Shown: positions 12,367-51,900 of the stretch, piece by piece
How positions within the stretch are numbered: the stretch's first letter is position 1
Layout: each line of letters begins with the position of its first letter
Source of the DNA: Muricea muricata
Lineage: Eukaryota > Cnidaria > Anthozoa > Malacalcyonacea > Plexauridae
DNA length: 64,000 bases
Direction of reading: 5' to 3'
Assembly (NCBI GenBank): GCA_963855995.1
Contig: OY979717.1
Location: forward strand, 45,496,044 to 45,560,043
Notes under the pieces: generated by a model
Databases searched by the model: none
Told to the model about the DNA's origin: nothing
Seen by the model: only the letters and a program-made list of their open reading frames with translations
Translations under genes and position numbers: made by a program

Positions 12367-13129
12367 GTTGTAATTCAACCACAATCGGTGCAACAACAGA
12401 GTATGCAGCATATATATCCAAATCGGTGATAATATAGTCTTGATGGTCTGATTCGAAGATACAGGGTTTTAGCACTTATGGTCAGGGGGCGCTTCTACCC
12501 TCCCCTATAATTCGAACCAGAGCTGGTGGAGTTATGATGCAGACTGTTGAAGGCAGCCAATTCGATGTCAATGTCGAAAGGCAACCGCATTTGGTTGGTT
12601 GTCGAGGCCAATTGTGCGAAGCCATCCGTGTGCGATCTTTTATTACAATACCTGGTTCTTTTCACCTTCATCATGCTCTCTTTTATACCATCCCTAGGCT
12701 AATCCTTCGAAGGTATAGCAGAATTCCTGACATCTTTTGAAACCTGCTCATTTAAATTGATTACGCTATCATGCAATCTCATATGATACTTCTCATTATT
12801 TCTTTATTTGTGCACGACCAGAGTTATTTTGTGATTTCCTGAAATTTGATTGGCTGCACGAGCGGGCGGCTTTTTACGATATCTTGGCCCGCGGGCCGAA
12901 AGAGTTATTTTTTTAAAAACAAACCAAGGAGTGGAGTTGATTGTCGAACTTGAATAAAAGTGTCTAAAAGCCAAAAACATTCCAATGAAATTAAAGATAA
13001 AAAATAGACTGAATTGACTTCAGCAGATGTCTTCTGAAGATTAAAACTAACTATGCAACAACGAAAAACCCCGGCAGAATCTAACAAAGTTTTACAAACA
13101 AAGCCATACATGTATCAAAATCTGTCGTA

Positions 13130-13410
13130 CCATAGGTGGCCCAGAAATCGGTGGTTTTTAACCTTAAATAAATGAATCTTGTGTATAATATTCCTCTTAC
13201 AGCTGTCAGAAACTCGCGGAATTGTTTTTTCTCGTGCGACAGTCGGTTTGTCTCGCGCGACGTTCGTGCAGTATTATTAGTTTAATATATTCCCGACTGT
13301 CGCACGAGAAAAAAACAATTCCGCGAGTTTCTGACAGCTGTAAGAGGAATATTATACACAAGATTCATTTATTTAAGGTTAAAAACCACCGATTTCTGGG
13401 CCACCTATGG
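13130..13410. mobile_element. Palindromic element, CCATAGG-end group, 281 bp, TSD TCGTA
   Basis: Arms of about 117 bp begin CCATAGGTGGCCCAGAA and are almost identical. TCGTA flanks both ends (13125-13129 and 13411-13415). It is non-coding. Its ends resemble those at 19661, 35479 and 50670. Confidence 0.9.
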
Positions 13411-13884
13411 TCGTACATATTATACACGGTATCGACCAGAAATAAAAAGCACACATTGAAATAAATAGTGAAACATAGACAAATTCAAAAATAATACTGT
13501 TTGGTAATACTTGACTACTAACCTGTAGTTTAAGGATGATTCCTGGACTTGAAATTTTAGTATTAAATGTTGTCAAAAACTAAATCTGATTTTTGCAAAT
13601 CGAAAATAAAATTTGCTGCGTAAAAACGCCTATTTCAACCATGTTTCAGTTGTAAAACGAAGGGTAAAATAAATAATCGTAATAACTTTACCTTTTTCAT
13701 TGCCGTATTGTGTGTAAAAACGTCAGTAGCAGAGAAAATATAGTCTTCGTTTTAGCTGTTTGTCGGCCATTCTTGAATAAATATTGAAGGAAAGTAACAA
13801 ACTAGCTGATCTCAAAGGATGTTCGCAACACTGGATTTTTGTAAGAATTTAATTAATTATGCATCACGCGGAAAAAAATAAAAA

Positions 13885-14019
13885 CGTTATTTACCGTTTA
13901 GGTCGGTCCGTACTGGAAAAATATTTTGTCTTGGTCTCAAAAACGTCCTTCGGCCTCGGACAGTTTTTGAGACCTCGACAAAATATTTTCCCAGTACGGA
14001 CCTCCCATCCGGTAAATAA
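13885..14019. repeat. Palindrome of about 135 bp
   Basis: GTTATTTACCG at the left pairs with CGGTAAATAAC at the right. The inner arms GTCCGTACTGG, AAATATTTTGTC and GTCTCAAAAAC are mirrored. It abuts the left end of the Penelope-like element. It is probably a separate MITE, with no clear duplication. Confidence 0.75.
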
Positions 14020-14065
14020 CATATGTTGTTTAATGTTTTCAATTTAAAAATAAAATTTTATTACG

Positions 14066-14090
14066 TTTCGGGGTTAAGCCCCTTCTTCAG
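14066..14090 (-). ncRNA. Hammerhead-like core in the 3' terminal repeat of the Penelope element
   Basis: On the minus strand CTGAAGA is followed by a GGGG/CCCC stem with a CTTAA loop, then GAAAC. This matches the CUGANGA - stem II - GAAA arrangement of hammerhead ribozymes, which Penelope-like elements are known to carry. I could not identify a convincing stem III or cleavage site, so it may be a decayed copy. The inverted arm (15600-15625, plus strand) has CTGAAGA, GGGC/GCCC and GAAA. Confidence 0.45.
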
Positions 14091-14282
14091 AATGACATTC
14101 ATTAATCCCCGTCTCTTTAATTAAATACCTTCTACAATTTGCATATAAACATAAATTAAACCTCTACTTTTAAATTAACTCTTAACTTTTAAAATAGCAA
14201 TTAAGCTTCTCTACCCAAAAACTCTCCCTCTCAGTAGGGTTATTAACGTCAGTACAATCAATAACCTGCACTGACAAATCAC

Positions 14283-15386
14283 TTAAACCTGAATGGCCCT
14301 CCCCAAAAAAATGAGCATACAAATGCTGCCAGCAACATTTGTCTGTTCACGACCATACCTATTTAAAAAGCTTTTATGATTATTAAAGCGGAACTGAAAT
14401 GATGTTATAGTACTTCCAACGTATTGTAGCCCACAGCTGTTACAACTTATTAAATATATTACACCCTCTGAGTCACAATCGAAACGATGATTAATGAAGA
14501 AAGAACGTCCCTCCGCATTGCTTTTAAATTTATCACCAACTGTAACGTTGTCACAAATTTTACATCTATTCTTTCCGTACTTAAAGATCCCTACGACTGC
14601 TTCCTCTTCCCTTCGCAACTTAGCACGAACTAAATGGTCCTTAAGGTTCTTGGTACGACGAAAACATACCATTGATGGTTCTGGCATAATGTGCAAAAAC
14701 CTTTCAGACCAAGCTACAATTCCCTGCAATTCTCTAAATATCTCATAAAGAACTCTCAATGCTAGATGATAATCAACTACAAAGCAATTTCTATTACTAT
14801 TTTCAATCCCCTCTTTTCGCTTAAGTAGACTATTCCTGTTGACTCCCCTCACCCTTTCAAACTGGTTGTCAACATAATCGGAACAATACCCCCGTTTTAC
14901 CAAAAACCCTTAACGTTCTCCTAACTTTTCCTCAAAAACCTTATCCGAATTACAAATTCGCCTCAAACGTAAACCCTGGCTATAAGGGATCGCTCTCTTA
15001 ACGTGTGGAGGGTGACATGATTTAAAATTCAAATACTGATGCGCATCAGTAGGCTTAGAGTAAACTTCAGTGTGAAACGCACCATTAACTTTAGTAATCT
15101 GCACGTCCAGAAAAGCAATCTCCCTCAAACCAATTTCCCATGTAAACCTAATGTTCTCATGAAATGAGTTCAACCTTGCGAGGAAATTACTCAATTCATC
15201 CCCGCCATGAAGCCGTATCATGAAAACATCATCCAAAAACCGCCACCAAACCCAAGGCTTCAACTCACAAGAATCCAAAAATCGCTTCTCAAAATACCCC
15301 ATAAAAATATTGGCAAAACCGGGAGCAAATTTAGTCCCAATAGCCGTCCCCAGTTTTTGTTGAAACACATTCTCATACAAACTCAT
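14283..15386 (-). pseudogene. Reverse transcriptase (C-terminal part) plus GIY-YIG endonuclease, one internal stop
   Basis: The two open stretches, 15386-14910 and 14903-14283, are in the same frame and separated by one TAA at about 14910-14912. The first has the RT catalytic FLDDVF, then IAFLDVQIT and VYSKPTDAHQYLNF, typical of Penelope RTs. The second has a Cys pair CKICDN, SFFINHRFDC and the nuclease core VIYLISC..CGLQYVGST followed by FRFNNHKS. GIY-YIG nucleases nick target DNA to prime reverse transcription. The frame ends inside the terminal repeat. RT fingers are missing at the 5' end, because the frame opens at the boundary of the other repeat. Confidence 0.88.
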
Positions 15387-15667
15387 TTTTCGGGGAGGGC
15401 CATTCAGGTTTAAGTGATTTGTCAGTGCAGGTTATTGATTGTACTGACGTTAATAACCCTACTGAGAGGGAGAGTTTTTGGATAGAGAAGCTTAATTGCT
15501 ATGTGCCTAATGGACTTAATTTAAAAGAAGAGGTTTAATTTATGTTTATATGCAAATTGTAGAAGGTATTTAAAGAGACGGGGATTAATGAATGTCATTC
15601 TGAAGAAGGGGCTTGACGCCCGAAAACGTAATAAAATTTTATTTTTAAATTAAAAAACATTGTTGTT

Positions 15668-18600
15668 GTTTTTTTGAAGTTAAATAAATGAAAATTTTTG
15701 TGCTTTATTGTTTTAATCAATTTTTAATAATTAACAAGCAAAATTATTAATTGATAACTATATAACATTTAGCACAGAAAAGGTGGGGTATTACTAACGC
15801 CCACCACACATAACATATCTATATAAGTTCTACATAAAGCTTTCAAAACGGGGAGGAGGGTGGGTAAAATTTCTTTCGTCCGATTTCTTGATGTGCACTG
15901 CAGCCCTCGTGAAATAGGAAAGGAAAGGTGACCCGTTTCACCACCAATAAATACCGATTTTCAAATCACACGACTATACCTAAATTAACTTATGCGCACA
16001 AATATCCTATTTCGCATAATTACTTCCAATTATAAATTATTACGGGAAGCAATAAAAACTCTTATCGCCGTGGCAATAAGCCCCTTTAGATAGGGTTATA
16101 ATTCTAACACTAGACGAAAACTATTTGAAGCAACGGCAGGAATTTATCGTAGCCACATCTATTGAGACACTTGTGCTTGACCACTGGACTACGTTGGTTA
16201 TGAGGCTCAGGCAAGGTGGTTTAAGTTGTCTAAGCGTTCTAGCCTATGCTTGATTTTTAAAAGTGACCAAAGCCAAAACGATTTTTGGCAAAGGCTGGTA
16301 TTGATCCTGTCAATAAAAACAGAACGTAATACTATAGAAATCATCAAATTTCGCGCATTTCATTTCTTTCCGTGTTGTCCCTCCTTTCCTCAATTCCTTT
16401 CCTTTACAGACTGCTCCCACTCTGTTATTTCATCAGATATATAACTTTTATCATTCGGCTTAACATTGACTAAAAGATATTGATCTACGCATCGGTTGTG
16501 CTCACAACAAAGTTAGCCCCCCCCCCCCGATATGAATACCACCCAAATTTCGCCTTTTTGCTCATTTTAATTTCGACCTTTTTCTCAGCTGAAACTTTGG
16601 TTTATTTTAATACATAAGCATGTATGCATTCCGAACCAAGTTTTATAAATTTTGAAGTTCAAAATGTAAACAAGGCGTTTGTTTACATAACGGTTGCGCA
16701 CCATTTTTAAGGCCAGATGATCACAACAGACATTCTAGTTATTGTAGTTAGTGGATTAGTGAAATTTTGCGATCTTAACAACTATATAAACATTTCTTTT
16801 TGAAGGAACCCAGACTACCTCGGCAAAACCCACGACGGTACGACTTTCGGCAGAAGGTTAACTAACTTTTTTAACATAAGTGTTATGTGACCGAAGGGCA
16901 TATTCTAACCACTAGACTTGGACTCTGGACTATGGAATTTCAAGATTTTTTGCTCTTTTGCTAGTTTAAAATAAATTCAATTCTCAGTGTTCTTCAGTTC
17001 AATTCCGTAGTTATATTCAATTTTAGAAAGTACATATTAATTATTTGCAGACTGAGACCAAAAAAATGAGAATGGGTGATCTAATCATGGATTATATGTT
17101 AAGAATTTCTTGATTACTTGCATCTCTAGATCTATAAAATTATTGTGGAATTATTATTTAAAATGGCGTGCATTTCATTAATCAATTCATTCAAAAATAG
17201 ATTCCACCTCCTAACGTTTTATCATTTACAACATTGATTAAGCTTAGGCGGGCGAGGTTGCGTCGAAACACTCTTTATGGGTGTGCGAAGTTCTTTCGTC
17301 ACCATAATTTTGGCTAGAATTGTAGCCCAGTAATATTGTAAAGATATTAATATCCACGGGATCAAGTACTGCTAACTCTGAACGTACCGCAGTGAACTGC
17401 ATATTTGACTGGAACGATAACTTGGCTTCCATCTTTGATCCCCAAATTGACCTACAACAGGCTATGTTTTCAAGTTCAGGCCCTTTCTATCAGCAATGTA
17501 AAGAGATTTGATGTTTTCACTTTGATTCAAGAAGTAATGCCTAGGGTTTATGAAATTGCGACTTAGTTTTCGACACTACTGTCTTTCATTGAAAAAGAGA
17601 AAATAGATTGGCAAAATGGTACTAGAAAGTGTTATGGACTTATACGCAGCTAGAAACGCACATGTTGCAAAAGGCTTGTTACTTTGCTGTTATCAAACCA
17701 ATATCTCGATATCATGCAGGATGCGTTCGCATCCAGTGCTCCGGCTTGATGATTACAAGTCTGTTACAAATTCTCAACAGGCTTGATGCAAGTTGATTAA
17801 TTGTCCAGACTTTATCCACACAAGCTTGATGCAAGTTGTTTCAACAAGTTACAGCAAGAGACCTGATGAAACTTGATGAAGCCAGCAAACCTGATGCAAC
17901 TTGATGACGAAAATCCACAACTTGTATCAAGTTTGTGGCATTTCTGGCTGTGTAGTTGTTGTCGCCATTTTGGCTAACATGGGGATCTTGCGTGGAGTTA
18001 TCGTTCCAGTATTAACAGAGCTCACTGCCGTGCCATCGACGTATACATTCAAAAACATGTACTAGATCTTTCTCAGCTGCTCTCATCAGGGCGGCATAAA
18101 CAGACATTCTTTAAACTTAATATTCAATTGGTATCCAGCTAATGTTTTCACAGTTTCATTAAATTGAACATTTTTATGACTTCGTTTTCTCATATGGACT
18201 TTCAAAAATGCCCTTTATTGATTTCTATATCATTGCTATGGGACCGGTGATGTACTTTATGAAATGATAGTGGAAGGCTTCGTTAGCAACTTACATTCTC
18301 ATAATCCCTTCAAAAAAATTTTGAATAACTAATTACAGACATAAATAGTCTTGTTTTGCCTGGTTGTATTTTTTTATATTTTAATGACCAGGAATGTCTC
18401 GTGTTTGGGTCTTTCATTCCGTTGCTCTTCTTTTGAGTTCACGTTGGTAAGCAAGCTTTGTTACATAGGGATATCAGCTTGATTCCAAGATAAAAAATCA
18501 ATAAACTATCGGCAATCATGTTTAAATGTATTGTTTGAATATAGTATACCTGTTCGCTATAAAGCTATTTTGATTTGGTGAGTTGTATTTAAGTATTATC

Positions 18601-18840
18601 AAATATTTAAAAAATAGCTCATGAAATTTTGGGTGTAATCGAGTTGTGTTTTTTAAACCTTCTGTATCGAACGATTCATTTGCACGTGCAGGTTTTGCGT
18701 AATTAAGTCAAGTGGCACTGCGATTTATTTCGTTTGGTACTAATATAAACGTGTAGGACGAGTTGTGAATTGTACCTTAATAATTGCACTCATCCTCGTG
18801 TGGAAATCTACATTTGAGCTATATATGTAAAACCAGTTCA
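15668..18840. other. Gene-free stretch with SINE-like and motif repeats
   Basis: No coding exon is recognised. Near 16170-16235 there is a copy of the 11-kb SINE-like words. At about 16885-16925 the minus strand reads GTCTAGTGGTTAGAATATGC, strongly like the D-arm/A box of tRNA-Glu/Asp, so a tRNA-derived SINE fragment is likely. There is a C homopolymer near 16519. Confidence 0.4.
17745..17945. repeat. Cluster of CTTGATGCAAGTTG words
   Basis: GCTTGATGCAAGTTG and variants such as CCTGATGCAACTTGATG and AACTTGTATCAAGTT recur six to eight times in both orientations over 200 bases. It is built like the CAACATTG cluster at the window start, but with a different word. Confidence 0.55.
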
Positions 18841-18843
18841 ATA

Positions 18844-19107
18844 AAGGTTGTCCTTCCAAAAGCGTAAATTGTAAACTGTGAGCGCGCAAGGGCTGACGGT
18901 TTATTGCTTATTTTCACCTCAAGCGCAAGGGCTGACAGTTTATTGTTTATATTACATAAACAGCATCATGAGCACATAGGAAACTCACGACGGCAAATTT
19001 ACTTTATACAAAGATAATTCCCTGATTATCAGGGACTAAATAAACAATCATCCATCATCCCTTGCGCGCTCACGGTTCACAGTTGACGCTGCTGGAAAGA
19101 CAGCCTT
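18844..19107. mobile_element. MITE with terminal inverted repeats of about 50 bp
   Basis: AAGGTTGTCCTTCC at the left mirrors GGAAAGACAGCCTT at the right. Inward, ACTGTGAGCGCGCAAGGG is mirrored by CCCTTGCGCGCTCACGGTT. The interior repeats GCGCAAGGGCTGACxGTTTATTG. It is non-coding. Confidence 0.8.
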
Positions 19108-19660
19108 AATTGAATTAGCTGTAAGCACATTTTTACATCACTAAGTTTGAAAGTGGCCGACAGTCGAAACACTTCGTATTTCAAGAAAAGCTGATATTAT
19201 TTTTCAAAGCTGTTGCTGCTGAAGGGGATATGGTCAATTTGCAAAAGGCATGTTCAAGATGGCGGCCACTTTTTAAGATTTTTGAAACGAAAAGCAATAT
19301 AAACAACGAGATATTTATAACATTCTTAAAGCTTACCCTAAACCATACTATATATAATTTATTCATTATCATTTTATATATAATTGCAATCCCTTTACAA
19401 AATGACTGAATACAATTTACACTTACAATATGAAGCACTTTATTAAGAAAATAATTCGGTTTTTCGTGAGACGACAAAACTTTGTAAAAGACATGTCGGT
19501 GAGAAAAATATGCATTCATAGCCCGCAAAGAGACTCTGGCCACCCTGACTGTATAGGCTTTTACAGGGAAATTACACTCGAACACTTGAGATGTGCGAGA
19601 AAATACATGCTATGCCCTGCACCCACTCGTCTATCCTGCATTGAAGTTTCGGAAGTCCTA

Positions 19661-20636
19661 CCACAGGTCACCCGGAATGCGTACAGTTCTAATATAGCGT
19701 TCAGTGGGACAGCATCTGTTACATAATGTATATATTAACACAAAGGTTGGCAAGTAAATACAAATTTGAACACTCGTACAAAATTTAAACCACAAAAAAA
19801 TCTGCAAAAAGACTTCGATATTCATTTAAAAACATACACATATTGAGAAGACATACCTGAAAAGCATATACGTTGTATTTTTGTGTCAATTCAACATTTT
19901 TTACCCAACGAAATTTGCGAAAAGTCATCAAATTTTTAGTTGATTTTCGCTAAAACTATGCGCGATGCCGGCTGCCTGCCTTACGTCACACGAAAAAGCT
20001 CCCTGATTGGCCTGCTGAAAACTCAATTTTTTTACCGCGAAAGCAAAACCGGGGGAGCTACGTAATATACAATGAATATACAATGCTTCTTCTTTTGAAC
20101 CTCTTCACATCTTTAGCACTTCAGTTTAAAATTTTTCGAAGTTGTTTGCATTTGTTACTGAGTTGTTGTTTTTAAAAAAGCTTTCACTTCAAATTTCCCT
20201 CCGCAGCGTCGGCGTAGCTCTTTGAAAATTTTAACATTTCTCCCCCGGTTTTGCTTTCGCGGTAAAAAAATTGAGTTTTCAGCAGGCCAATCAGGGAGCT
20301 TTTTCGTGTGACGTAAGGCAGGCAGCCGGCATCGCGCATAGTTTTAGCGAAAATCAACTAAAAATTTGATGACTTTTCGCAAATTTCGTTGGGTAAAAAA
20401 TGTTGAATTGACACAAAAATACAACGTATATGCTTTTCAGGTATGTCTTCTCAATATGTGTATGTTTTTAAATGAATATCGAAGTCTTTTTGCAGATTTT
20501 TTTGTGGTTTAAATTTTGTACGAGTGTTCAAATTTGTATTTACTTGCCAACCTTTGTGTTAATATATACATTATGTAACAGATGCTGTCCCACTGAACGC
20601 TATATTAGAACTGTACGCATTCCGGGTGACCTGTGG
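19661..20636. mobile_element. Large palindromic element, CCACAGG ends, 976 bp, TSD TCCTA
   Basis: Two arms of 397 bp (19661-20057 and 20240-20636) appear identical by eye. They begin CCACAGGTCACCCGGAA and enclose a 182-bp loop. TCCTA lies immediately outside both ends (19656-19660 and 20637-20641). No frame encodes a recognisable transposase. Identical arms and an exact duplication mean the insertion is young or the arms are being homogenised. Confidence 0.93.
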
Positions 20637-20641
20637 TCCTA

Positions 20642-22600
20642 CATTCATACATTAAGTTCAATTGGTTTTTGCAAACGTTGATATGTATACATGCATCTGG
20701 ACTGCTTGCTTAGCCTCTTTACGACATAAATGTACCGCCTTCGATCACATCACGATTGTGGCGCTGGGATTAAAGAGCGGAACCATATATTCGTGATCGC
20801 AACATTAAGGAATAACCCTCAAAAACAGTTATCTTGTACGTACGAATTAATCTCAGCTTTCGTAACTTTTAATCGCTAACATAAGTCTCAAGTCAAAAAT
20901 TATACTGTATACACGAGCAAGAAGTCCAGATGTTTGTATGTCAGTGATTCCAACTGTTCAACGGCATTTAATTCCCAGGATGAAATTGTTAGGATATATA
21001 ATGTTTTAACAAGATGAATTATCAAGGGAATAGATGCGGTTTTTCTCATGTCTATACCACATGTACCGCATGTTGCTAGATCCAGCTTTTTATAGCTATT
21101 GAAAATCATTGTACAAAATATCTAATAATTCTCATATCCCCTTTGATAAATCAATATATTTTACAGTTAAAAGTACATTAATAGTTTAAATCTTACTCGA
21201 GCAACACATACATCCACTGCCATATTTGCCGACGAGAAAAGTGATCTGTCTTTGCGAATTAGCGCAGAACTGGTGTTTGTCTGGCAAATGAACTCCGAAT
21301 GAGTGACTAAACTCCGTTATTCGAGTTCAGTGGTTTCTCGTTCTTTCCGTGGTGTTGCCGCGAAACTTTTAAATTTCATGATTTCATGAGCCGTTGAAAC
21401 AGTATCGTTTAAAAGATTACGATGAGTCAAATGTTGAGTGTTGTATATGAACTATAATCTATATCACTCTACCGTATGTACACAAATCATGATACAACTC
21501 ATGAACTTAATCATATTAACAAATGTATCAATCATGCAATATATGATAGAATGGTAAGACTGGAATAAAGTTCGGTTCTATAGTAAAACATATTGTTAAT
21601 TCTTTGCCGAAAAATCTAGTATAATTTATGAAATTGTGTCTCGCCGAACTATTTATGATAAATTAACTTGTCTTCGCACAAATTTGTTTTTAAGCAGTTT
21701 GTAATTTGCCGACCACTTCATGAGTGAAAAACAATTAATTAATATTTCCTGCTCGAGATTAAATACATACATGTAAAAAAAATACGGATATTACTGTTAA
21801 TTCACTCTCTTGGTGTTTTTCAATAGCAAGGCTTTATACTCGACGTAAAGTTCACCCTGACCCCGATTAGCTTTGTGAAGTTCTAAAGAATGAGTGTAGC
21901 CACTTTATTCTAAATTGAAACTTATTCGCATTATCAAAGCAAATGTTTGCTTTTGTCAGTTTTCTATAAAAGTTTCAAAAGTTATTGGCGCTTTCGGCAC
22001 ACCTGTCCGGCTGTTCCATGTGTTTTACAGAACATATTAGAATTTTGGCACCTGGTATGGCGAGCCAATCACGCGCTCGTAGCCAAGCGATGCTGTGCAA
22101 TTGTTATGATTTCAATAATTGTTTAAAAACGCCGCCGATAATAATGCCCGCGTGTAAATTATCATCAACACAATGCTGCGCTAACTAATCATAAACGAAA
22201 GAATAAAGTCCGCTGCCAGTGTTGATTCATAATTTATTTTCGCCTGTTGAAAATAACAGGATTAGATGTACTTCATTTAAAAATAATGTAGATGTTAAAT
22301 TATAATTGATTACAATTCCGTTGATAATACCGTTAAATTTTATTACACGCAAATACAGCCCGTTATTCGTTAATCCTTTTCGCGTTCCTATTATCCATAA
22401 TATGTGAATCATTTTTTCTTGAGATAAACACCTAAATAGGTTAAAACAATCATATCGTCGATGGGGTGCCACCCCCAATCAATTCAGGCTCCATTAAAAG
22501 GCTGAGTGTTATTTTAAGTCATATCCAGCCACCGAAATTGCGCACTTTGATTCAGACTCGTGCATGCAGGTAGGAACAGATTCGAGGCTAATGTACATGC
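20642..22600. other. No gene seen; upstream flank of the homeobox gene
   Basis: AT-rich sequence with no recognisable coding exon or transposon ends. It may contain the promoter and regulatory DNA of the homeobox gene that starts at 22615, but no specific element can be defended. Confidence 0.4.
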
Positions 22601-22614
22601 GATAGTACAGAGAA

Positions 22615-32757: not shown

Positions 32758-34480
32758 TTTTTTTTATTTAAACATATTTAAACGTTTGCCCCAAGAGCGA
32801 TGTAAGCTCATCTAGGGGGCTCACGCCTATTTATAATAAGATACACATATTAGGATGGTAAAATTAAAACAGCTGGTTCGTTAATCATTACAAACTGCAA
32901 AACGCCCTGATCTTTTGATATATGATTGTACATGGAAAACAATAGCCTTGTTTTGTTCCACGGTCAATTTCTCAGACCCAAACAAAAACATTTTAGTTTT
33001 ACGAGAATCAGACTTATAATACCAACCATTTCCCAATATTTCAACCATGGCCGCTAACAAAGACGTCCTAAGAGCAGCGTATCGGGGACAATATAAAAAG
33101 TAGTGAATTACCGATTCGCTATTAATTAAATCCACAATCACGTGGTGGAGATGTTACACAATTAATTTTAAAAAGATGATAATTTAATGCGCAACAATTC
33201 AAACGAAGTCGAGTATGGAGAACTGAACTATATCTATCATGAGCATAATCATAATGTTTCTCATAGGTTGAAATGTCAAAGAAATCCTGCAAACAACGCT
33301 TAAAATTACTTAGTGATTGAGTCTCCCGAAATTCATAGTCTAAACTGTTCCATAAACATGTAGTAGCAGGAAAGTAAGATTTCTTAAATCTCTCCGTACG
33401 ACATTGGAATAAACTAATCTTTGTTGTGTCGTAAGAGTAAGTAAATCGGATAAGTAACTTGGTGTCAAATCATTAACTATCTTAAAAAACAATACAAGCT
33501 AATGTACTGAACGTCTTGTCTTTAATCTTTCCCATGCAAGTTCCTCCAATAACCTTTGGCGCTCAGTACCCTTCATTGCACCAGTGACTATTTTAGCAAA
33601 TTCATATTGTACAGATTTAAGCAAATCACTAACATTATCACAGCAACCATCCCAAACAACATCAGCATATTCCATAAGAGGTCTAATTAGAGATTTGTAA
33701 AGTTTGTCCAAAGTGTTTCTGTTAATTTTCAATTTCAAACCTTTCAATAAATTTAGTCGCTTTGAAGCTTTGTCATGATGACATGAATATTTAAAATATG
33801 TGTTCTCCAGGACAAATTAGAAGAAAGGGTGACTCCAAGATGATTATGACTACTGACAATATCAATCTCATTTCCTTCATAATATAAAGCCGGATGCATT
33901 GCTGGTTTGTCTCTCTTAGTAGAGAAGATCATCGCTTCAGTTTTGTTGGGATTAATAGTGACAAGCCAATCACGTGTCCATTTACTGATATTTGTTAAGT
34001 CGCTATTGAGTTTGGCTGACGTTAGCTGAGGATCTTCTACAATTTCTAACAAAGAAGTATCCGCATAAATAAAACAAGTACTTTGGATACTGTCAGTAAT
34101 ATCATTTATATAAACTAGGAATAGCAGAGGCCCAAGAACTGATCCCTGCGGCACTCCTGCTTGAACGTATTTCTAATCAGACATAGTACCATCAATAACT
34201 ACTCGTTGTCTTCTATTTGTCAAATAACTTCTAAGCCAGGATAATAATGGATCTCTAACACCCAAACGTTCCAACTTAAAGAGAAGACCTTTATGCCACA
34301 CTTTGTCAAAAGTCTTACTGATATCCAAGAAAACCACATGCACTTCACTACCACGCTCTAAAGCTTCATAAATTGTAAAAATAGGAACAACATTTGCTAG
34401 TTTCCAAGCTGAAAAATCCGGCGCAATTTCTGTAGTTTTACTGTCTAGATCGCAGAGTCCTGGCTTTGGACTCCTCTACA
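32758..34480 (-). mobile_element. 5'-truncated, decayed non-LTR retrotransposon (LINE)
   Basis: On the minus strand, from about 34470, comes an RT palm region (VHVVFLDISKTFDKVWHKGL), then LRSYLTNRRQ, PQGSVLGPLLFLVYIND and IYADTSLL, where the usual YADD has lost one Asp. The thumb and C-terminal parts follow (LDKLYKSLIRPLMEYADVVWD and later FLYCPRYAALRTSLL). At least three frame breaks or stops separate the segments (34154-33753, 33747-33499, 33141-32881). The 3' end is near 32758 with an A-rich tail. It looks CR1/L2/Jockey-like, with the clade not fixed. It is inactive. Confidence 0.85.
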
Positions 34481-35470: not shown

Positions 35471-35478
35471 ATATTATA

Positions 35479-35571
35479 CCATAGTAGCCCAGAGAACGCA
35501 GCGTGTTTTTATTGCCACGCGCGAGCGCCACAAGAATAAACTACACGCAGCGTTTTCTGGGCTGCCTATGG
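35479..35571. mobile_element. Short palindromic element, CCATAG ends, 93 bp, TSD TTATA
   Basis: CCATAGTAGCCCAGAGAACGC mirrors GCGTTTTCTGGGCTGCCTATGG. TTATA lies directly outside both ends (35474-35478 and 35572-35576). It is the smallest member of the CCATAGG-end group, and its ends match those at 13130. Confidence 0.88.
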
Positions 35572-35764
35572 TTATACCGAAAATAAGCCACAGAAAAGCA
35601 GAAGTAGTACATACAATATAAAAACTTCGCCAAATTTTATCAAGCATTTCTTCATCTGTAAGTCCTTCGACATTCCTGACTGCGTCCGAAATTGTTTTTA
35701 GAACATTCCGTGTTGTTTTTCGCCCAATATTACGGAGAATTTGTTTGACTAAACCTTTTTATGC

Positions 35765-37132: not shown

Positions 37133-37481
37133 CCATAGATATCTCATATACACTAGATAGCGCATCTGTTATCAAAAAGTGAAGCCAAAAATCTCAGCGG
37201 TATCCCCTCATAACAATAGGCGGCGGCCATATTGGTCGTTTTCACTCATCAAAAAAATGCTACAGAAAACACTATACTTTTATGCATTTGTGTATTAAAT
37301 ACTTTTTAGCTGCATAAAAGAGGATTTATTGTCAACTTTGTCCATTTCCGCAATACAAAATACACAAATTATCATGCTCCATGTCGACTCTGTGGGAACG
37401 ACCAGCGCCTGCGATCTGGCTTCAATTTTCGCCTGCCCACAATGTGGGATGCACTATCTAGTGTATATGAGATATCTATGG
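37133..37481. mobile_element. Inverted-repeat element, CCATAGATATC ends, TSD GGAGAA to GGGGAGAA
   Basis: CCATAGATATCTCATATACA mirrors TGTATATGAGATATCTATGG, and the arms continue through CTAGATAGxGCATC. GGGGAGAA occurs at 37125-37132 and at 37480-37487. Because the terminal CC/GG overlaps the repeat, the duplication is 6 to 8 bp. It lies in the intron between the WAP-like and first CCP exons. Confidence 0.85.
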
Positions 37482-37985: not shown

Positions 37986-38255
37986 CCGGTGAACTCAATA
38001 TAACTGGAAGGCTACCTGAGACGGGAAATTTGAAGCCAACTTGTCAAAGTCCTTCCCAGTCTTCCCACGCAATTGGAAACTAGGCCAAAAACAACATCCT
38101 GCAACCCTTGTAGAGATCTCGCGCGAGTGATGGGTGCGGGACATAAACACGCGTTTCTGGAAGTCAAACACGCGTGTCTAGAAGTCAAGTTTGGCTTCAA
38201 CTTTTGCGTACGGATTTATGCGAAGGTAGCCTTCCAGTTACATTGAGTTCACTGG
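37986..38255. mobile_element. MITE just downstream of CCP exon B
   Basis: CCGGTGAACTCAATATAACTGG mirrors CCAGTTACATTGAGTTCACTGG on the complement. The inner arms AAGGCTACCT and AGGTAGCCTT pair, and TTGAAGCCAACTTG is mirrored by CAAGTTTGGCTTCAA. Flanks TAAGAT and TAAGTT may be a diverged 6-bp duplication. It begins 11 bases after the exon B donor. Confidence 0.75.
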
Positions 38256-39400: not shown

Positions 39401-39589
39401 TGATTCTTATTTAGGCAAGAAGTGTAATGACCCTGGAATTAGTAATAACAATTCATTACGTCAAGAACCAATTCTGGCAGCTGGTGTATTTTTGACGTTG
39501 CAAGTCTTGAATTATTATTGCGTTCCTGGGTATCTTATTGAAGGAAAAAACAGCATTACCTGTCAAGAAGATGGTATACCGGCTGGTTG

Positions 39590-42010: not shown

Positions 42011-42339
42011 ACATTGAGGCGCTTCGCGAGACAGCATGACACATTTGTCAACTTTTTTTTTTGATGCACCCTCTGTATATATATATATATATATATATTT
42101 CTTTTGCAAAGAAAACCAAATACCAGTTTTCAGAGCATAGAAAATATCGATTAACGATCGAAGTGACGGAAAAAATAAATCCTGATTCAAGCTTGCACGC
42201 AATGAAAAAACGCCGATTGACGTGTCACAAACAAAAATGACAACATCGTACAAAAATGTTGTAGAATAACTGTAGCGGTTGTAGCGGGATGTTTCTAGGC
42301 ATTGTGATTATACGTTTCACGCGCCTGTTTGATATGTTC

Positions 42340-44517
42340 TTCGTTTAAACGTTAATAGCCTATTGAAACATATTGATGAAATTAGGCATTTGTTATTCAA
42401 ATTTCCCTTCGACATTTTTGCTATAAATGAATCTAAGATTGATGATTCAATAATGGACGGGGAAATAAGTATTTCTGGCTTTAATTTGATAAGAAAGGAC
42501 CGCAGTAGGGCTGGAGGTGGTGTGGTTCTATATATCAGAGAGAGTTTGTCTTATATAGACAGAAATGACTTGGTGCCGGACCGTCTGGAAATGCTATGTG
42601 CTGAAATCAATCGCCCCTAGCTTTAGTAAATCACTTTTTGTCAATATGACAATGTGAGCATCATCCTACATTCATTGCAGAAGAATTAAATGACTACTTT
42701 AGTAGTATAGGTTCGAAGTTAGCATCAGAATATGAAAATGAGGCTAGCACTAACGTTGATGATTTGTCTGTAAATTATACTTTTAACCAATCTTCAGATA
42801 CTTTTTTGAAATTCTCCCGATACATGTTGATAGTGTTGCTTCAACTTTAAGAGGCCTAAAAGCATGTAAGGCAACAGGCTTGGATAATATTCCTGCTAAA
42901 ATTCTCAGCATATAATTGCACCATCGCTGACTTTCATTTTTAATTTATCGCTTGCTACTGGTATATACATAGATGAGTGGAAGCAAGCACGTGTAACGCC
43001 AATATTGAAATCTGGGGATAGGAGACAATGTGAGAACTATCGGCCAATTTCTATTTTACCAGTGGTGAGTAAAGTATTTGAAAGGGAAGTCTTCCGTCAG
43101 CTGTATAGTTATCTGACTGAAAACTCCCTATTGTCAAACTTCCAATCTGGATTTCGTCCAAAGCACTCGACTGCAACTGCCCTCATCCAAATGTGCGATG
43201 AGTGGTTAGAAAATATGGATAATGGTAAATTAAACGGAGTAGTATTCTTAGATATTAAAAAGGCATTTGACTCTATAAACCATCATATTTTGCTAAATAA
43301 AATGAATGAACAATTTGGAATTTTTGGGATGGAATTAAAATGGTTTCAATCATATTTAACGAATAGAGAACAGTAATGCAGTATTTATGGAGAATTATCT
43401 AGCAATAAAGTTATTTCACATGGAGTGCCTCAGGGGTCTATATTGGGGCCACTCTTATTTTTATTATATATAAACGACCTGCCTGATTGCTGAAAATCAA
43501 CAATCCCATGAGGCATGTACGCAGATGATACGCAAATTTCTTCCTCTTCAAATGATGCAAATAAGCTTGTAGTAGAATTAAATTCAGATCTTGCTCATTT
43601 TTAAAGAAAACAGACTGCAGATGCATTCCTCTAAATGCAAAATGATGTTTATTGGCTCCTCATATAATCTTAATAATATCATTTGCGAGGAACCCGTTGT
43701 GGCAAATGGAAAACCAATTTCTCGAACTAATACACAAGTTTGTCTGGGAGTAAAACTAGACGAAAACCTTAGTTGGGCTAGTGATATCGACATGATATGC
43801 AAAAAGGCGAGTTCCGGTATTGGTGCTATTAAACGTATCAAGCCCTTTGTTCCAGTGCATACTTTAGAATCTATTTACAAAAGTCTTGTTCAGCCCTACT
43901 TTGATTATTGTTCCCCTTTATGGGACACGTGCGGAAAACTTCTAAAAGATAAGCTACAGAGATTTCAGACTCGTGCAGCAAGAGTTATATTGGGTGCCAA
44001 CCATGCTACTCATTCAGTCGATCTTCTCAACATGCTTTCTTGAGATACACTTGAAAATCGACGGTCTGGTGCCAAGTCAGTATTAATGTATAAAATATTA
44101 AATGACCACACTGCGCCTGGTCTGCGTGGTTCCTTCGTTAGGAGGGAAGTACTGATCAAACTAATTATCACCTCCGAAATACTGCTACAGATCTAACACT
44201 ACCTAAGCCAAAGCGAGAATTTTTGAAAAAGTCTTTCAAATATGGTGGCGCAGTGCTCTGGAATCAACTCTCAACAGAAGGGAAATTAGCAGAGTCACTG
44301 CATTCATTTAAATCAATTGTTGGACGATGACATGTCCAGTTTATTTGTTTGTTCTATATATATAACTTGTAGTCCTATATATTTAATCTGTGTGTTTTTT
44401 GTAATTAGTTCATGTTCTTTTTTTAATGATTTTTACATACAACACGCCCCCCATGGAAACCAGCTTTAAGTTGATAAGGCTAGCGTGTTATTTTTGGTAA
44501 AGTATTACCTACCTACC
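42340..44517 (+). mobile_element. Decayed non-LTR retrotransposon (CR1/L2-like LINE)
   Basis: It starts inside an apurinic-type endonuclease (LNVNSLLKHIDEIRHLL, FDIFAINESKID, AGGGVVLYIRE) that stops at 42619. A linker fragment follows (EELNDYFSSIGSKLA), then RT: ENYRPISILPVVSKVFE, FQSGFRPKHSTATAL, VVFLDIKKAFDSINH (43005-43376), stop, [31 protein letters not shown], and a C-terminal part at 43591-44043 (CLGVKLDENLSW, YFDYCSPLWD, LQNRAARVI-like). Several stops, frame changes and a deletion in the endonuclease make it inactive. The 3' end is near 44517 with a short ACCT-type tail. Confidence 0.9.
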
Positions 44518-45700
44518 ATTCTTGAGCGCACTTAATTTTGTCGCACACCAAAACCCACTCGTAAATGCCGAGGCTTTAGCGTAGGTAGTTTTACAAAGTT
44601 CATCATCAGGTCGTCTTTCTTCCATTACGCGTCTGGTCGCGCCTGGCTGCTGATTATACACGTTTTTTTCATGGTCATTTTTTTTTCGTTTGGCATACGT
44701 CATCCCTAGATACAAACCTGCCCTGCCTGCCCTACCCAACCCTGCGGGTATGACCCATATGTGATAAATTTATTTACACTCAATGTTTTGTCGCCAAGAC
44801 TTGGCATTTCGGATGACATTCAAGTAACACATAATGTCTCATTCGTTTCATAAAAATACAAATAAATAAACAACTCGCGTCAAATAAAGTAACGTTAGTT
44901 AATCAAAGGTATCAAAATAAACATGCGCGCATTAGGCACGCGATACTTATTAATGTTACAAGTCTTGTCAGTCTTACAGGTCTACAACTATGAAATATTT
45001 GCATAAAATTTGGTCATAGTTAATTTGATGAAATTCTGCGAGTTAAAATAAATAATTAGCATTTGATTATCCGTTCCACTGTAAAATAAATGTTTTGTCG
45101 TGATTTTGTTCGCGTGAGAAATTTTACTTGTCCCATCGAAGCTGTTGGATCTCAGAAGGCATTCATTGACTGTCCTGTACGACCTCTTTATTATCGGATC
45201 AATGCGCAACAGATTGTGTTCCCAGTGTAATTTGAAATATGAACTGAGGACTTTGAGGTCAATTTTTCAGACGCTCGTGTCGTATGTTCAGTATTTACTA
45301 CAGGAACGCACCAAATCCTACGCAAAACTAAGCATGCAGCAAAATATTATTCTTGCATTTCTAAGGTGTCTAAAACCTAACGCGCAACGATGAGGATGCC
45401 TAGGCGAAATCCGAACTCTACAATGCCAGTTGTGTTCTGTCTGCCGACGTCCCACTGCGCAAAAATTAATGTGTAACATTTTAAGCAATTAATTTTGCAC
45501 ACGTTTAAGTACTTGTATTTGTTTAAAAGTAGTTATATCGAAAGACAGTTTATTTTCTTGCTTCAGGGATTTGTTTAGCTTGAAAAAAGGCGCGCATATC
45601 ATGCAAATTTTATGGCCTCTCGTGCGCCCGGTATCGGTCATCGCACTTCCTTCGCACGCACATTGAGGCGCACTGTCATTCAAGGATCTAATTACAGAAC
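44518..45700. other. Upstream flank of the collagen gene
   Basis: No exon is recognised. It probably includes the collagen promoter, but no TATA box or other motif can be defended by eye. Confidence 0.35.
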
Positions 45701-45882
45701 AATCGACTATTTTGCATGAAACCCGAGAGGAATGCCTCCCCTTGCATGCGGGTATTATTCGGAATAGTTGGGCTGTGCTGCGTGCTTACCACAACTGCAC
45801 GAACCAACCTAGTCTCATTTGTCTCCAGCAAAGCTGTGAACGGACTCCGTGGTTAACCTTCGTTTATCGACCGGTTGATAAG

Positions 45883-45949
45883 ATGGAGTTAAGAAATTTA
45901 GCGATTCTTTTGGTTCTGTCCGTGGTGTTACATATGGCCAAATCGCAGG
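45883..45949 (+). other. Collagen exon 1: signal peptide
   Basis: MELRNLAILLVLSVVLHMAKSQ then a phase-1 donor (CAG G|GTAAGC). It has a hydrophobic core LAILLVLSVVL and probable cleavage after the Ala-Lys-Ser-Gln region. An in-frame upstream ATG at 45712 without a stop in between would add 57 unlike residues. The start at 45883 is chosen because it puts the signal peptide at the N-terminus. Upstream sequence is probably 5'UTR. Confidence 0.8.
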
Positions 45950-48900
45950 GTAAGCGATCGCTTTACATTCCAATGTCCTTCGTGCGCGAAATGTGTAATA
46001 TAGTATAGTTTTGTATTTTATGAGATACTAACTCATATGATTTGTCGTTTTGCGAAATTTCGCTTTCTCGTTTTAATTGCACTTAGAACAATATGAACAA
46101 TATACGCGCGAATGTTACAATGGACGCACATTATTCTCAGTCTCACAAACGCTCGCTGTCCATTTTGATGTCGGTGGATATTTATATCACGTTGATGCAC
46201 TCGTATATTAGTCTATGCTTTAAGAAATCATTTAGGGCCAATCTATGTGAGGTTAATTATATGTAGTAGAATAATATGCATTAATAAGTTTGCGAATAAA
46301 AATCGCCTGGGACTTTATAGTGCATTTGGTGTTTGTGTTATTTATACTAAGGCATTCTGATCATATACATTCTCAAATTTAAAAGGAGACCTTTATCGAT
46401 ACAGGAATGCCTTAGACGTATAATATGTTCATTATTGTTGTACTTGTTGCACGTTTATTATGCAGCGGACTTGACTAATGCAAGCGCCATGGTTCGAACC
46501 TTCGAAAATGTCGGAAAATGGCTGAAGCATTTGTCTGGTCGCCTGTAGATTTTTTCCGTACTTTAGTAACTGCAAGGGGATGTAGTTGAAGTGATAAAAA
46601 AGAACGAATCTTGCATGAAATTTGGTAAATACTTATGCGCCTATTTTTTGCGACAACAAAGACCGCAGTGTTTCTGACCCCAAGAATCGGTTGATACAAT
46701 GCGGCTCGCATTACAATATTCTCACTGGCGTTAGCGTTTACCAATTTGCGCGCTAACACTAACGCAAACACTGTATGCTTCACAATATTTTTGTGTTTTC
46801 ATTTGAAAGCATGATTGGAAGCCTTCAAAAGTTAGCGTGACCTATGCGTGCAAACATTGATATCCACATTAGGCGCTGACGTGACATACAATACAATAGA
46901 TTATTGTACCCTTCAATACATTGTGCACAAGTTATATAGAAATATTCCACGACTTGTGTGCAGCTTGAAAGCGGTTACATAAAATACGTTTTGATGCAAC
47001 ATTTTTAAAATCTATCAAAAGTTTGTATGCTTAATATACGCAAATATCCAAACGCTAACATATGATAGAGGCTAAATTTTGCTTACCTCCCCTCCGGTCT
47101 TACCTTCAGATTATGTATAATATTATGCATGCAAATAGACAAAGAGGTAGGAGTTTGCTACTACGTATATAATTTATCAAAGGAATTGTGGTTTGACCGG
47201 CCAATGGTGAATAATATACTGTATAATTCTAGTAAGAGCGGCAGAAAGATCACAAAATAGAATTGTGATGGAATTGCCCGGATGGTAGTGTTTCAAGCAA
47301 GCACCAAATTGGTAATCCGAGGGCGAGGTTTTCTTTCTGAAGCATAGATTCTGAGCTAGCTAAAAAGCTTAACGCTGATTACCATGGACCGGCCGGTTAT
47401 TCATTGGCACTCCATTTTGTTTAAACTGAGACATGAACAAGTATGAAATTACCATAAAAATGACCTTGAAATAATGACATAGTTTGATATTTCGATTCGT
47501 CATATGATATTTCCATAAGATATTTTCTATGATATTTCGAACTAAATGCATGGAAATTTATAACCATCTTAAATTTGTTTTTATTCATCAAATAATGAGT
47601 TTAATCGTCTAGCTTATTCATTGTGTTATTATCATACATTCGTTGTTGATTTCCCCTTTTTTCTGAAACAACGCTAGCTGGCATCAAATGCTTATATGCG
47701 CTTCTATGCCGTTTGTATTAGTTAATGCTGATTAATATATTAAATTTTGCATTAAATGGGAAATTATGGTTTGAATGTTTGTTACTTATATACTGAACAG
47801 CTATTCAACTGAAGATGACTTGTAATTCATGTCGAAACGTATCGAATAACATGTTGGTAATTTACGGAGTTCCAATTATTTTGTTTTATAAACTCATTTA
47901 TACCAGCATTTTTAAAAATCGTACCCTTTTTTGATTGCCGATACCAAGTGTTATCCACGTCAAGCTGTTGGTAATGCATGCGTAGGGAGAAGATGCAATA
48001 GTAAAAATTTTGAGTACGATTTTTGAGTATGTTTGCTGTTTGTGCATGGTATTACTCCGAGTATTAAACATGTCCTCACCGTTGAAGCTGAATGGATATA
48101 GACTCAAAGTAACAGGACAAAACAGTCAAGATTTGACCTCATCATTGAATAAAATTAGTCCTAATTTAAATTATTAGCTACTGTATATTTTTTAAATATA
48201 CCATATGCGTAGACAATAGATATTGCTATTATATTTTAATTTCAGTACTATGTCTAAACTGATATTAAACCATATACTAACACTGCGTTTTTCTTTGTTC
48301 CCATTTCAGGATCTGGCTTTGTAAGTATATTTAGTCCATTACTTTGTGGTCCATTCGTTTTAGACTGTTGTGTGCATGTTGATGTGCAATTTATTACATA
48401 AAGTACGGTGCTTTATAGGGATTTCGGGTTCTGATAAAACTGATAATCACACATGTGAGATTATTTATGATAGTTTCACATCCGAAAATTATCGCTTTTC
48501 AAACAATCATCAAACATAGCTTCTGGATATCTTATACTGGTAGAAAAGACTGGGAACTTTGAAATTAAAACTAACGTTAGCATAAATAAAACACTCCCAT
48601 TGCATTTTTGGCCGGCCAAAAATAATAGCTTGTTTTGATAATCATAGTTAACAAAATATTAGCTACCGGTATTTCGATAGCTCGTCGTCAAAGTAGAAGC
48701 AATAGAATGTAAGATTAAAGACAGGTCATATGATGTATAACTGAAAACAGGATCAAGGGAACAACATAACACCATGCATAAGCCTAACACTCATACTCAC
48801 ACGCCTTCAATTCGAATCGAAGGGATCGAAAATATCAATGAGGGTAATATTTTCATGAAAATTTTGTATTTTGTTAAAAAGAATAGTATATCTGAAAACA

Positions 48901-51900
48901 GGATCAAGGGAACAACATAACATCATACGTAAGCCTAACACTCATACTCACAGGCCTTCGAATCGAAGGGATCAAAATATTAATGAGGTTAATATTTTTA
49001 TGAGAATTTAATATTTTGTCAAAAAGAATAGTATGTCTGAAAACAGGATCAAGGGAACAAAATAACACCATGCGTAAGGCTAACGTTCATGTTCACAGGA
49101 CTTACTACCAAAGGGTTTAAACGGAGGATCGAACAGATTTAAGGGTTCGAGAACCAGGGTAATATTTTGAGTATTGTAGCACCTCTCGGAAGGTCGGTTG
49201 TGATTGGTTGATTAGTCTGTATTTTTCAGGTAAAAGGCGACAAAGGCGATCCGGGAGAAAAGGTTAGTAAAAAAATCATCAGTTTCAAGCCAGAAAGCAT
49301 GTTGAATTGTGCATACCAGTTTTAAAAAAGTCGATATCGTCGCTTGGCGACTGCTGTTTATAGCCATAACGACTGCCAAAATCGATAGGAGTGAGATTAT
49401 AGTAATACTTAAAACATAAGCAGGAGTACTTCATCAGATATAAAGACGCGATGCGCAACACAGCGCTTATTTCTGATAAAGAACTAACTGCGTATATTTT
49501 TAATGGATTTAAAAACGACCCATTTTGTACTCACCCTTTTTTTTAACTTCATCTGTATATAGCTAATGATACTAGTTGCTTTTCTAGTTTATTCGTCCTA
49601 ATTCGCGCAGTATTTAATGCGCCTACAAACGATTAGTTGATCTTTCTGGTTGAAAAGCTGGCATGACCAGATCGTGAAAAGTCTCATTGTCACAAGAAAA
49701 TTTTCTTTTTTACAGCACATTCATGAGCAAATAAAACATATCTACGCCTGCGGTCAACAATTTTTCCCTGTTTGTTTCTAACTCAAATTTCATTAGGAAC
49801 ATTTTAGTATTGCCCCTCTAGTTAGTTTACCTAGTTTTATGTGCTTTTAACGGCCAGTTGCGTGACTGCTGAATATTCTAACAAACTATGAAACTAGGTA
49901 AACAGTTAAATTCCTTTCAAAAACTCATTAATAATTTATGAAAAACATAAAGAAAACCATGGCTGTGAAGGAAGGAGTCTTTATAAAAATCCAGTTGATT
50001 TGTAGAAACTTTTTGCCTTTATTTTCTCCGCTTAACAGACCTGCCAACCTCTCACACAAAAGAATCTAGAGGCCAGTTGGAAAATTTCTGGAGATTGCCC
50101 CCAGAATTCTGGAGATAATTCATGTACTGACAAAAATAAATGGACTAACTGTGGATAACAGAATTTATAATAGTTTAAAAAAAACACTTAAATAAACATG
50201 AAATATTCCTAAAGTTTAACTGAAGGTTGTCAGTTACTTTCGTGGTTCACGTACGATCTAATACAGGCTATGTTTACATAACGTTTTCACTTTCTGCTTC
50301 CGCAATTTTGATAATAGTCTGCATAAATTATCATGAATCAAAAATAATTCAAAATGGCAAGCAAAAGCCAATATTATTTTAAATTTTTTAGTCATCGATG
50401 GGTTTCACAACGGTATAAAGTCAGAAAATTGTTAACATTCGCACCCAAAATTAATTTGACAGTATTTCCGTGAGACCGTGAGATGAAGTTCAAATTCGCG
50501 AGTCACACGGGAAATCCGTGAGAGTTGGTAGGTCTGCCTTAATTTAAAAACAAAATCTATATTGAGAACTTTTTCGTAAATAAGCTCACAAGATGTGTAT
50601 AAAATGGGTTGTTTTTGAAGCTATTCAAAATACTCGCTAGAACGCAGTTTTTGCTTATCACATCCTACTCCTAGGTAGCCCAAAACTCGATGTTTTGTAT
50701 AAATTCAATCACCTACTCAGTTTTATATTGGATGTTTGAGTTTATAAAAAACACCGAGTTTTGGGCCACAAGGGTCAGATATGAAAGTTCGACTGCGTCA
50801 AAAGCACTTCCTGGTGGTGTACATCTTACATATTTTGCTCAGCACAACACGCTGCATATATTTGCTAGAATCTATGCAGCATGCTTTCATTCTTAAAGTT
50901 TTTGTGGGATTAGACATTTAGAGATGTACATGGCTAAATTCTAATGTTTGTAGAATTTGATATATAATATTGTCCATATTTTACCAATGTTTTTTTTTGG
51001 AAAACGTTGTATAACGAGCTAGGTATTCTCTCTTGTAACTTGTTACACTTTCTCCAATACGTCAAACGCCAAACACCCGGTGCATAAGATGCTTTTACCA
51101 GTGAATACTTACTAAATTTGCACCCAAGTAATCACAAAATGAACACACCTGATCAAAAAGCCATATAAAAGAAAAAAACCTAAACCTGTGCAAAAAATGC
51201 AGTTTAAAACTTTATTGTATCTGTTCTAGGGTCAACCAGGGCCACCTGGAATTACGGGACTACTAGGTGCAAATGGTCCACCAGGTGTTCAGGTAAGTTG
51301 TTTGACTAAATTTGACTGAATTGTGTGACCACCTATACTCAACCTGCCTCAGTGGTCTGGTTTATCCCAATAGGTATGATTTAGCATTATTTGCTTTAAT
51401 ATAGTATTTTACTCAATCTCATCAATGGAAGAGTGCCTGGCACCTGATTGATGTGTTGTATTACTGTACTGTACCTTATTAGTACTGGGCCACTATTGAA
51501 AATATATACTTGGTATATTTGCTCTACACAGAAGCTGGCTAGAACTAAATTTGCCAACCTAGCTAGCTGTTTTGACATGATTTTCTTTCATGTTGACAAA
51601 TTCAACAATCTGATTTTTCGTTAATTTTGAGACTTTTACATACACTAGTTGTACATTTGTAATCATAGGGTTTAATGAATAACAATGTTAGAATTGAATA
51701 GGTTGCTGTACACGTTATCGAGCTGTTTCAGAACTGTCCTCAGAGATATGAAAAACTAGTTCATATCAATCTCACACTGCAGAGTCAACACAGAATTCAT
51801 TGCTTCATGTGGGATTTGAACTCTCAGCTTCATGTTTCTAGACTGTCAGTGTACCACCAATTGAGCTATCATTGAGCCAACTGGTATTGGTAGCGAGTCT

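What the first reader, a model, noticed from the sequence alone, without database searches (positions are those of the whole stretch)
13125..50773. Group of hairpin transposons with CC(A/T)(T/C)AGGT-like ends and TNNTA target duplications
Four palindromic elements share terminal text: CCATAGGTGGCCCAGAA (13130-13410), CCACAGGTCACCCGGAA (19661-20636), CCATAGTAGCCCAGAGAA (35479-35571) and CCTAGGTAGCCCAAAA (50670-50773). The first three have exact 5-bp flanking duplications: TCGTA, TCCTA and TTATA, all TNNTA. Interiors and lengths (93 to 976 bp) are unrelated, as if different palindromes are mobilised by one transposase that reads only the ends. The superfamily is not evident from the ends. 5-bp duplications are known for Transib and some hAT groups.
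Basis: partly seen in the sequence, partly recalled or inferred. Interest (0 to 1): 0.72.

Follow-up and report, generated by a model that had tools for sequence, protein, structure and literature searches.

The report
P-type hairpin MITEs, 7-bp target duplications
The hairpin sequences are small, gene-less jumping elements that duplicate 7 (sometimes 8) bases of target DNA rather than 5, and they are most likely moved by a P-element-type transposase, a kind that is abundant in this genome.

Summary
The four hairpins exist where stated, with related ends. The ends were misplaced by one base: the elements begin CAYAGG, not CCAYAGG, and the exact flanking repeat of the first two is 7 bp (GTCGTAC, GTCCTAC). 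The third matches at 6 of 7 bases; the fourth has none. Genome-wide, the 16-bp end occurs exactly 643 times against 1 for a reversed control. Of 51 paired elements read, 30 have an exact 7-bp duplication, 4 an exact 8-bp one, 9 a 7-bp one with one mismatch, 1 only 5 bp, 7 none. Such duplications at GT...AC are published for the P-superfamily elements 1360 and Galileo, not for Transib. The genome is full of P transposases, and the window holds two further hairpin MITEs with ends like those of P elements here. No transposase was found between CAYAGG-type ends (1 of 291 ends within 10 kb of a P domain, 2.6 expected), so the P assignment rests on target anatomy and company, not on a master copy. 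New families of a known kind.

The parts
13131..13409 (.). Element 1 (family B), 279 bp hairpin MITE, end CATAGGTGGCCCAGAAATCGGTGG
13124..13130 (.). left 7-bp target duplication GTCGTAC of element 1
13410..13416 (.). right 7-bp target duplication GTCGTAC of element 1
19662..20635 (.). Element 2 (family A), 974 bp hairpin MITE, arms of about 398 bp 100% complementary, end CACAGGTCACCCGGAATGCGTACAGT
19655..19661 (.). left 7-bp target duplication GTCCTAC of element 2
20636..20642 (.). right 7-bp target duplication GTCCTAC of element 2
35480..35570 (.). Element 3 (family C), 91 bp hairpin; left end altered (CATAGTAGCCCAGAGAA), right end CATAGGCAGCCCAGAAAACG
35473..35479 (.). left flank ATTATAC of element 3 (6 of 7 bases equal the right flank GTTATAC)
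35571..35577 (.). right flank GTTATAC of element 3
50671..50772 (.). Element 4 (decayed, D-like ends: ..GTAGCCCAAAACTCG / ..GTGGCCCAAAACTCG), no convincing target duplication found
37134..37480 (.). Further P-type hairpin MITE, 347 bp, end CATAGATATCTCATATACACTAGATAG, exact 8-bp duplication GGGAGAAC; its first bases resemble the end of P transposon L038 (CATAGATATAGKAGACCTAGATTG)
37987..38254 (.). Further P-type MITE, 268 bp, end C(A/G)GTGAACTCAATATAACTGGAAGGCTACC, 8-bp duplication with 1 mismatch (GTAAGATC/GTAAGTTC); 85% (140 bp) and 91% (53 bp) identical to the end regions of the transposase-bearing P element L033

Best explanation
The hairpins are non-autonomous, palindromic MITE or foldback elements of several families (A, B, C, D, E) that share a ~16-bp terminal sequence CAYAGGYNRCCCRRAA. 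A P-superfamily transposase (THAP/RNase-H type) acting in trans most likely excises them by cut and paste and inserts them with a 7-bp, occasionally 8-bp, stagger into palindromic GT(NNN)AC targets. Shown: the shared ends, the 7/8-bp duplications, the GT...AC preference, the lack of a P transposase match in the 20 large loci read, and the abundance of P transposases and other P-type MITEs in the genome. Inferred: that the transposase is of the P superfamily, that it acts in trans on all these families, and cut and paste itself.
For: Exact 16-bp ends 643 against 1 in control. Target duplications in 51 paired elements: 30 exact 7 bp, 4 exact 8 bp, 9 seven-bp with one mismatch, 1 five-bp, 7 none. 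In the 24 of these pairs that the flank-neutral listing contains: 14 exact 7, 4 exact 8, 3 seven with one mismatch, 1 five, 2 none (counted by hand). GTNNNAC precedes 27 exact ends, 4.2% of 643, against 0.31% of window 7-mers, and the 7 inverted pairs in that listing all have reverse-complementary 7-mers. Published parallels, read as passages: 1360 7 bp GTTNAAC, P element 8 bp GTCCGGAC, Transib hopper 5 bp (PMC3276498); Galileo 7 bp, three copies 8 bp, GTATTAC/GTANTAC, long inverted repeats (PMC4168063, PMC3573991). PF21787 gave 723 first-look candidates, 150 scored, all 150 over the Pfam cut-off. Five of 12 P loci fetched have CA...TG ends and exact 8-bp duplications: L033, L034, L037, L038, L036, with P domains by Pfam. 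Two more hairpins in the window resemble L038 and L033 at their ends.
Against: No P transposase lies between CAYAGG-type ends as far as searched. tblastn of 12 P proteins against the 20 loci L009-L028 and the window gave no hit at 1e-3. Of 291 typed end positions, 1 is within 10 kb and 0 within 5 kb of 203 typed P positions, 2.6 expected by chance within 10 kb. None of the 12 P loci carries the end. GT...AC is not unique to P: hobo (hAT) has GTNCGNAC with 8 bp. All P elements with transposase that could be delimited here make 8-bp, not 7-bp, duplications, as do the Anopheles and zebrafish P elements in the passages read.
Confidence: 0.78

Rival explanations
1. One reading: 5-bp TNNTA duplications and CC...GG ends, a Transib-like or 5-bp hAT-like group.
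For: Three window elements have 5-bp repeats next to CC...GG.
Against: The exact repeat is 7 bp in 30 of 51 pairs and 8 bp in 4; copies with G or T in place of the outer C repeat that base in the other flank. Inner TNNTA in 6 of 30. Transib hopper is 5 bp with motif CCANTGG.
Confidence: 0.03
2. A hAT transposase moves them, with mostly 7-bp and some 8-bp duplications at GT...AC targets.
For: hobo target is GTNCGNAC; 4 of 51 pairs have exact 8-bp duplications.
Against: 7 bp is the mode (30 of 51), whereas hobo is 8 bp in 99.8% of insertions. CACAGG and CATAGG do not fit the YARNG hAT start (recalled). hAT transposases were not searched for in this genome.
Confidence: 0.12
3. Not transposons but spontaneous palindromes from inverted duplication at replication or repair.
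For: Long perfect arms (398 bp in element 2) and many other palindromes in the window; the 4.9-kb L010 palindrome lies between inverted copies of family A.
Against: Hundreds of dispersed identical termini and precise 7/8-bp duplications at different sites.
Confidence: 0.02
4. An unrecognised transposase superfamily with 7-bp duplications moves them.
For: No master copy was found; the ends differ from those of the P elements delimited here.
Against: Length and target match 1360 and Galileo; the same genome and window hold P-type hairpin elements.
Confidence: 0.05

Closest known systems
Galileo (P superfamily, Drosophila)
   Same: 7-bp duplications with a few 8-bp ones, GT...AC palindromic target, long inverted repeats, many copies without transposase (PMC4168063 and PMC3573991, passages)
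   Different: End sequences and transposase were not compared; here no transposase-bearing copy was found, and several unrelated interiors share one kind of end
1360 (P superfamily, Drosophila melanogaster)
   Same: Modal 7-bp duplication, GTTNAAC target (PMC3276498, passages)
   Different: Protein and end sequences were not compared
P-MITEs of Anopheles gambiae
   Same: Short elements with P-type ends and central regions unrelated to P (PMC1562414, passages)
   Different: They make 8-bp duplications and share their ends with identified P masters
P elements of this genome (L033, L034, L036, L037, L038)
   Same: CA...TG ends, similar targets, related hairpin MITEs in the window
   Different: 8-bp duplications and other end sequences

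Membership tests
P superfamily (non-autonomous member) | 7- or 8-bp target duplication | tested here: met
   30 exact 7-bp and 4 exact 8-bp of 51 pairs
P superfamily (non-autonomous member) | palindromic GT...AC target motif | tested here: met
   27 of 643 ends have GTNNNAC against 0.31% background; in 14 pairs from the flank-neutral listing G 15/28 and T 19/28 at positions 1 and 2
P superfamily (non-autonomous member) | ends shared with an element that encodes a P transposase | tested here: inconclusive
   not found: 1 of 291 ends within 10 kb of a P domain, 2.6 expected; the listings cover only part of all ends and P copies
P superfamily (non-autonomous member) | mobilised by a P transposase | not testable with these tools
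   needs a transposition assay
Galileo/1360 branch | transposase phylogeny | not tested
   no cognate transposase known
Transib | 5-bp target duplication | tested here: not met
hAT | 8-bp target duplication (5 or 6 bp in some groups, recalled) | tested here: not met
   mode is 7 bp, 30 of 51; 8 bp in 4 of 51
hAT | YARNG start (recalled) | tested here: not met
   CACAGG/CATAGG

The most novel reading that the evidence does not exclude
A 7-bp branch of the P superfamily, met in the papers read here only in Drosophila, exists in this distant genome and recognises so little of the end (~16 bp) that independently formed palindromes of 91 bp to several kb are all mobilised. Palindromes are repeatedly made from P elements here, as in the 3.9-kb perfect palindrome L095 with two head-to-head partial transposase genes.
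Probability: 0.25. Interest if true: 0.5.

Novelty: new member of a known kind. Interest (0 to 1): 0.3.

Why it matters
It corrects a tempting misreading: when a target begins with G and ends with C, its outer bases look like part of the transposon. It also places a large MITE population with the P superfamily rather than with 5-bp elements. If the 7-bp branch is confirmed, the difference between 7- and 8-bp staggers within one transposase superfamily can be studied outside flies, together with how palindromic elements arise.

Tried and rejected
Tried without success: finding a master copy. Long stretches between family A ends (L009 2,926 bp; L011 4,708 bp; L012 1,605 bp) hold family A pieces and other DNA, and the 4,913-bp family B palindrome L010 likewise; none contains a whole ORF of 140 aa or a P transposase match. 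Ten of the 21 stop-to-stop ORFs of at least 140 aa in L009-L028 were scanned with Pfam: reverse transcriptase in three (one below the Pfam cut-off), ankyrin repeats in one, nothing in six; the other 11 were not scanned. Variants of the end and three P queries gave no end next to a P domain except one 6.8 kb away, fewer than chance predicts. P loci L029-L032, L035, L039 and L040 could not be delimited. The 7-bp near-repeat GAGGCTC/GAGCCTC in L032 and the 8-bp AATCGATT in L035 lie inside longer inverted repeats and were discounted.

Rejected: arm homogenisation within each copy. In family A, arms within a copy are 88-100% identical, arms between copies 89-100% (7 copies, two of them from one duplicated segment). 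Family B hints at it (5 of 7 copies at least 99% within), but only 110 bp were compared.

Bias to know: L009-L028, L046, L047 and L077-L082 were picked from a listing that demands an outer C, and L087-L094 from one that demands GTNNNAC, so the 30-element motif is biased. The 24 pairs of the listing, the 14-element motif and the ratio to one search are not. Some of the 51 pairs have the same flanks and are copies of one insertion (L041/L046, L043/L044, probably L048/L052); L025 was left out as a duplicate of L023. L011 lies in a tandem array, so its duplication is less sure. In one search neighbouring P hits were merged by hand and at least one end is entered twice.

Full report
What is there. 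The four hairpins are at the stated places. Moving the boundary inwards by one base changes the picture. Element 1 is GTCGTAC|CATAGG...CCTATG|GTCGTAC (13131-13409) and element 2 is GTCCTAC|CACAGG...CCTGTG|GTCCTAC (19662-20635): exact 7-bp repeats, and no longer ones. Element 3 (35480-35570) matches at 6 of 7 bases. Element 4 (50671-50772) keeps related arms but has no convincing duplication. A scan of the window for CA...TG inverted ends (at least 12 of 16 bases paired) with an exact 7- or 8-bp duplication returned five hits: elements 1 and 2, a further element at 37134-37480, and two hits lying inside elements 1 and 37134-37480. The reversed window and five block-shuffled windows returned none.

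The window lies in a 453-Mb genome of 74 contigs. Exact CAYAGGTNNCCCRGAA occurs 330 times forward and 313 reverse, against 0 and 1 for the pattern read backwards. Related ends CATAGGYAGCCCARAA occur 53+42 times against 0+0. I read 51 paired elements, in families A (CACAGGTCACCCGGAATGCGTACAGT), B (CATAGGTGGCCCAGAAATCGGTGG or ...AAACGCATG), D (CATAGGCAGCCCAAAA...) and E (CATAGGTAGCCCAGAAATCGG), plus window element 3. Longest exact flank duplication: 7 bp in 30, 8 bp in 4, 5 bp in 1; 7 bp with one mismatch in 9; none in 7. Of the 7 without, L041 and L046 share a left flank, and L010 is a palindrome whose flanks are inverted family A sequence. The 24 pairs that the flank-neutral listing contains (100 of 643 ends were printed) divide as 14, 4, 1, 3 and 2 in the same order (hand count). 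In copies whose base outside CA is G or T (L018 GTACTAG, L013 GCATTAT and GTCTTCT, L026 GCCTAAT) that base is repeated in the other flank, so the outer C of CCAYAGG is target DNA. Inner TNNTA holds in 6 of 30.

Target. GTNNNAC stands before 27 exact ends, 4.2% of 643, against 0.31% of 7-mers in the window. The seven inverted pairs in that list all have reverse-complementary 7-mers. In the 14 exact-7 pairs of the flank-neutral listing, both strands counted, position 1 is G in 15 of 28 and position 2 is T in 19 of 28. In the 30-pair set, which is partly selected, a C/G three bases outside also stands out (32 of 60).

Which transposase. Published values read as passages: 1360, 7 bp, GTTNAAC; P element, 8 bp, GTCCGGAC; hobo, 8 bp, GTNCGNAC; hopper (Transib), 5 bp (PMC3276498). 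Galileo: 7 bp, three copies with 8 bp, GTATTAC (GTANTAC in a six-species sample), long inverted repeats (PMC4168063). Mainly 7 with a few 8 bp at GT...AC is thus Galileo's pattern. The genome is rich in P transposases: PF21787 gave 723 first-look candidates, 150 scored, all over the cut-off; PF12017 gave 338 candidates, 150 scored, all over the cut-off. Of 12 P loci fetched, five have CA...TG ends with exact 8-bp duplications: L033 GTCAACAC, L034 CCTGTGTA, L037 GAATAGAT, L038 GGCGGCAC, L036 GTGCAGAC. Their proteins carry the P RNase-H, GTP-binding and HTH domains, and four of the five a THAP domain. Two more hairpins of the window go with these 8-bp families: 37134-37480 has an L038-like start and 8-bp GGGAGAAC, and 37987-38254 is 85-91% identical to L033 end regions with an 8-bp duplication at one mismatch.

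What is missing. No transposase was found between CAYAGG ends. tblastn with 12 P proteins found nothing in the 20 loci L009-L028 or the window. Among 291 typed end positions and 203 typed P positions, one pair is within 10 kb (C3, 6.8 kb) and none within 5 kb, where 2.6 pairs within 10 kb are expected by chance. The lists are incomplete: one search printed 100 of 643 ends, and searches scored 150 of 723 and 150 of 338 candidates. hAT transposases were not searched for. So P membership is inferred from target length and motif, from the company these elements keep, and from the published parallels.

Palindromes. One P-derived element fetched for comparison (L095:544-4458, C11) is a 3,915-bp palindrome with ~1,830-bp arms at 100% identity, an 8-bp duplication AGGACAAT and ends CACTGACCTGAATGATATGG. 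Each arm carries a partial P transposase (HTH and RNase-H N-terminal domains), head to head. The domain searches list the same head-to-head arrangement at C3:12.956 Mb and C3:36.96 Mb, which were not fetched. Palindrome formation is therefore not a special mark of the CAYAGG families. In family A, arm-to-arm divergence within a copy is about that between copies.

Verdict. Ordinary in kind: non-autonomous hairpin MITEs, most likely of the P superfamily with Galileo/1360-like 7-bp targets. Paper searches made: of which I saw 15 of 417, 15 of 26 and 10 of 12 listed papers; no listed title is about such P MITEs outside insects. Repeat databases could not be searched, so these families may be catalogued already.

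Noticed in passing
window 12121-12366: Another hairpin, 246 bp, end GGTCATGGCTTTATAGG, exact 10-bp flank repeat GTTGTAATTC: Mutator-like by length (recalled), not P.
   Followed up: partly
window 14070-15620: Reverse-transcriptase-like and GIY-YIG-like ORFs on the minus strand (14283-15431) inside near-perfect inverted repeats: looks like a Penelope-type retroelement (by eye, recalled).
   Followed up: no
L095:544-4458: 3.9-kb palindrome with 100% identical ~1.83-kb arms holding two head-to-head partial P transposase genes; the same arrangement is listed at two further places on C3.
   Followed up: partly
L010:494-6429: A 4.9-kb family B palindrome flanked on both sides by inverted family A sequence; the flanks mirror each other instead of being duplicated, as if the whole locus had been inverted-duplicated.
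   Followed up: partly
L011:773-9219: A ~3.7-kb unit starting with a family A end is repeated in tandem at 96% identity.
   Followed up: no
window 42900-44043 and 33753-34172: Reverse transcriptase fragments of LINE type (by eye).
   Followed up: no
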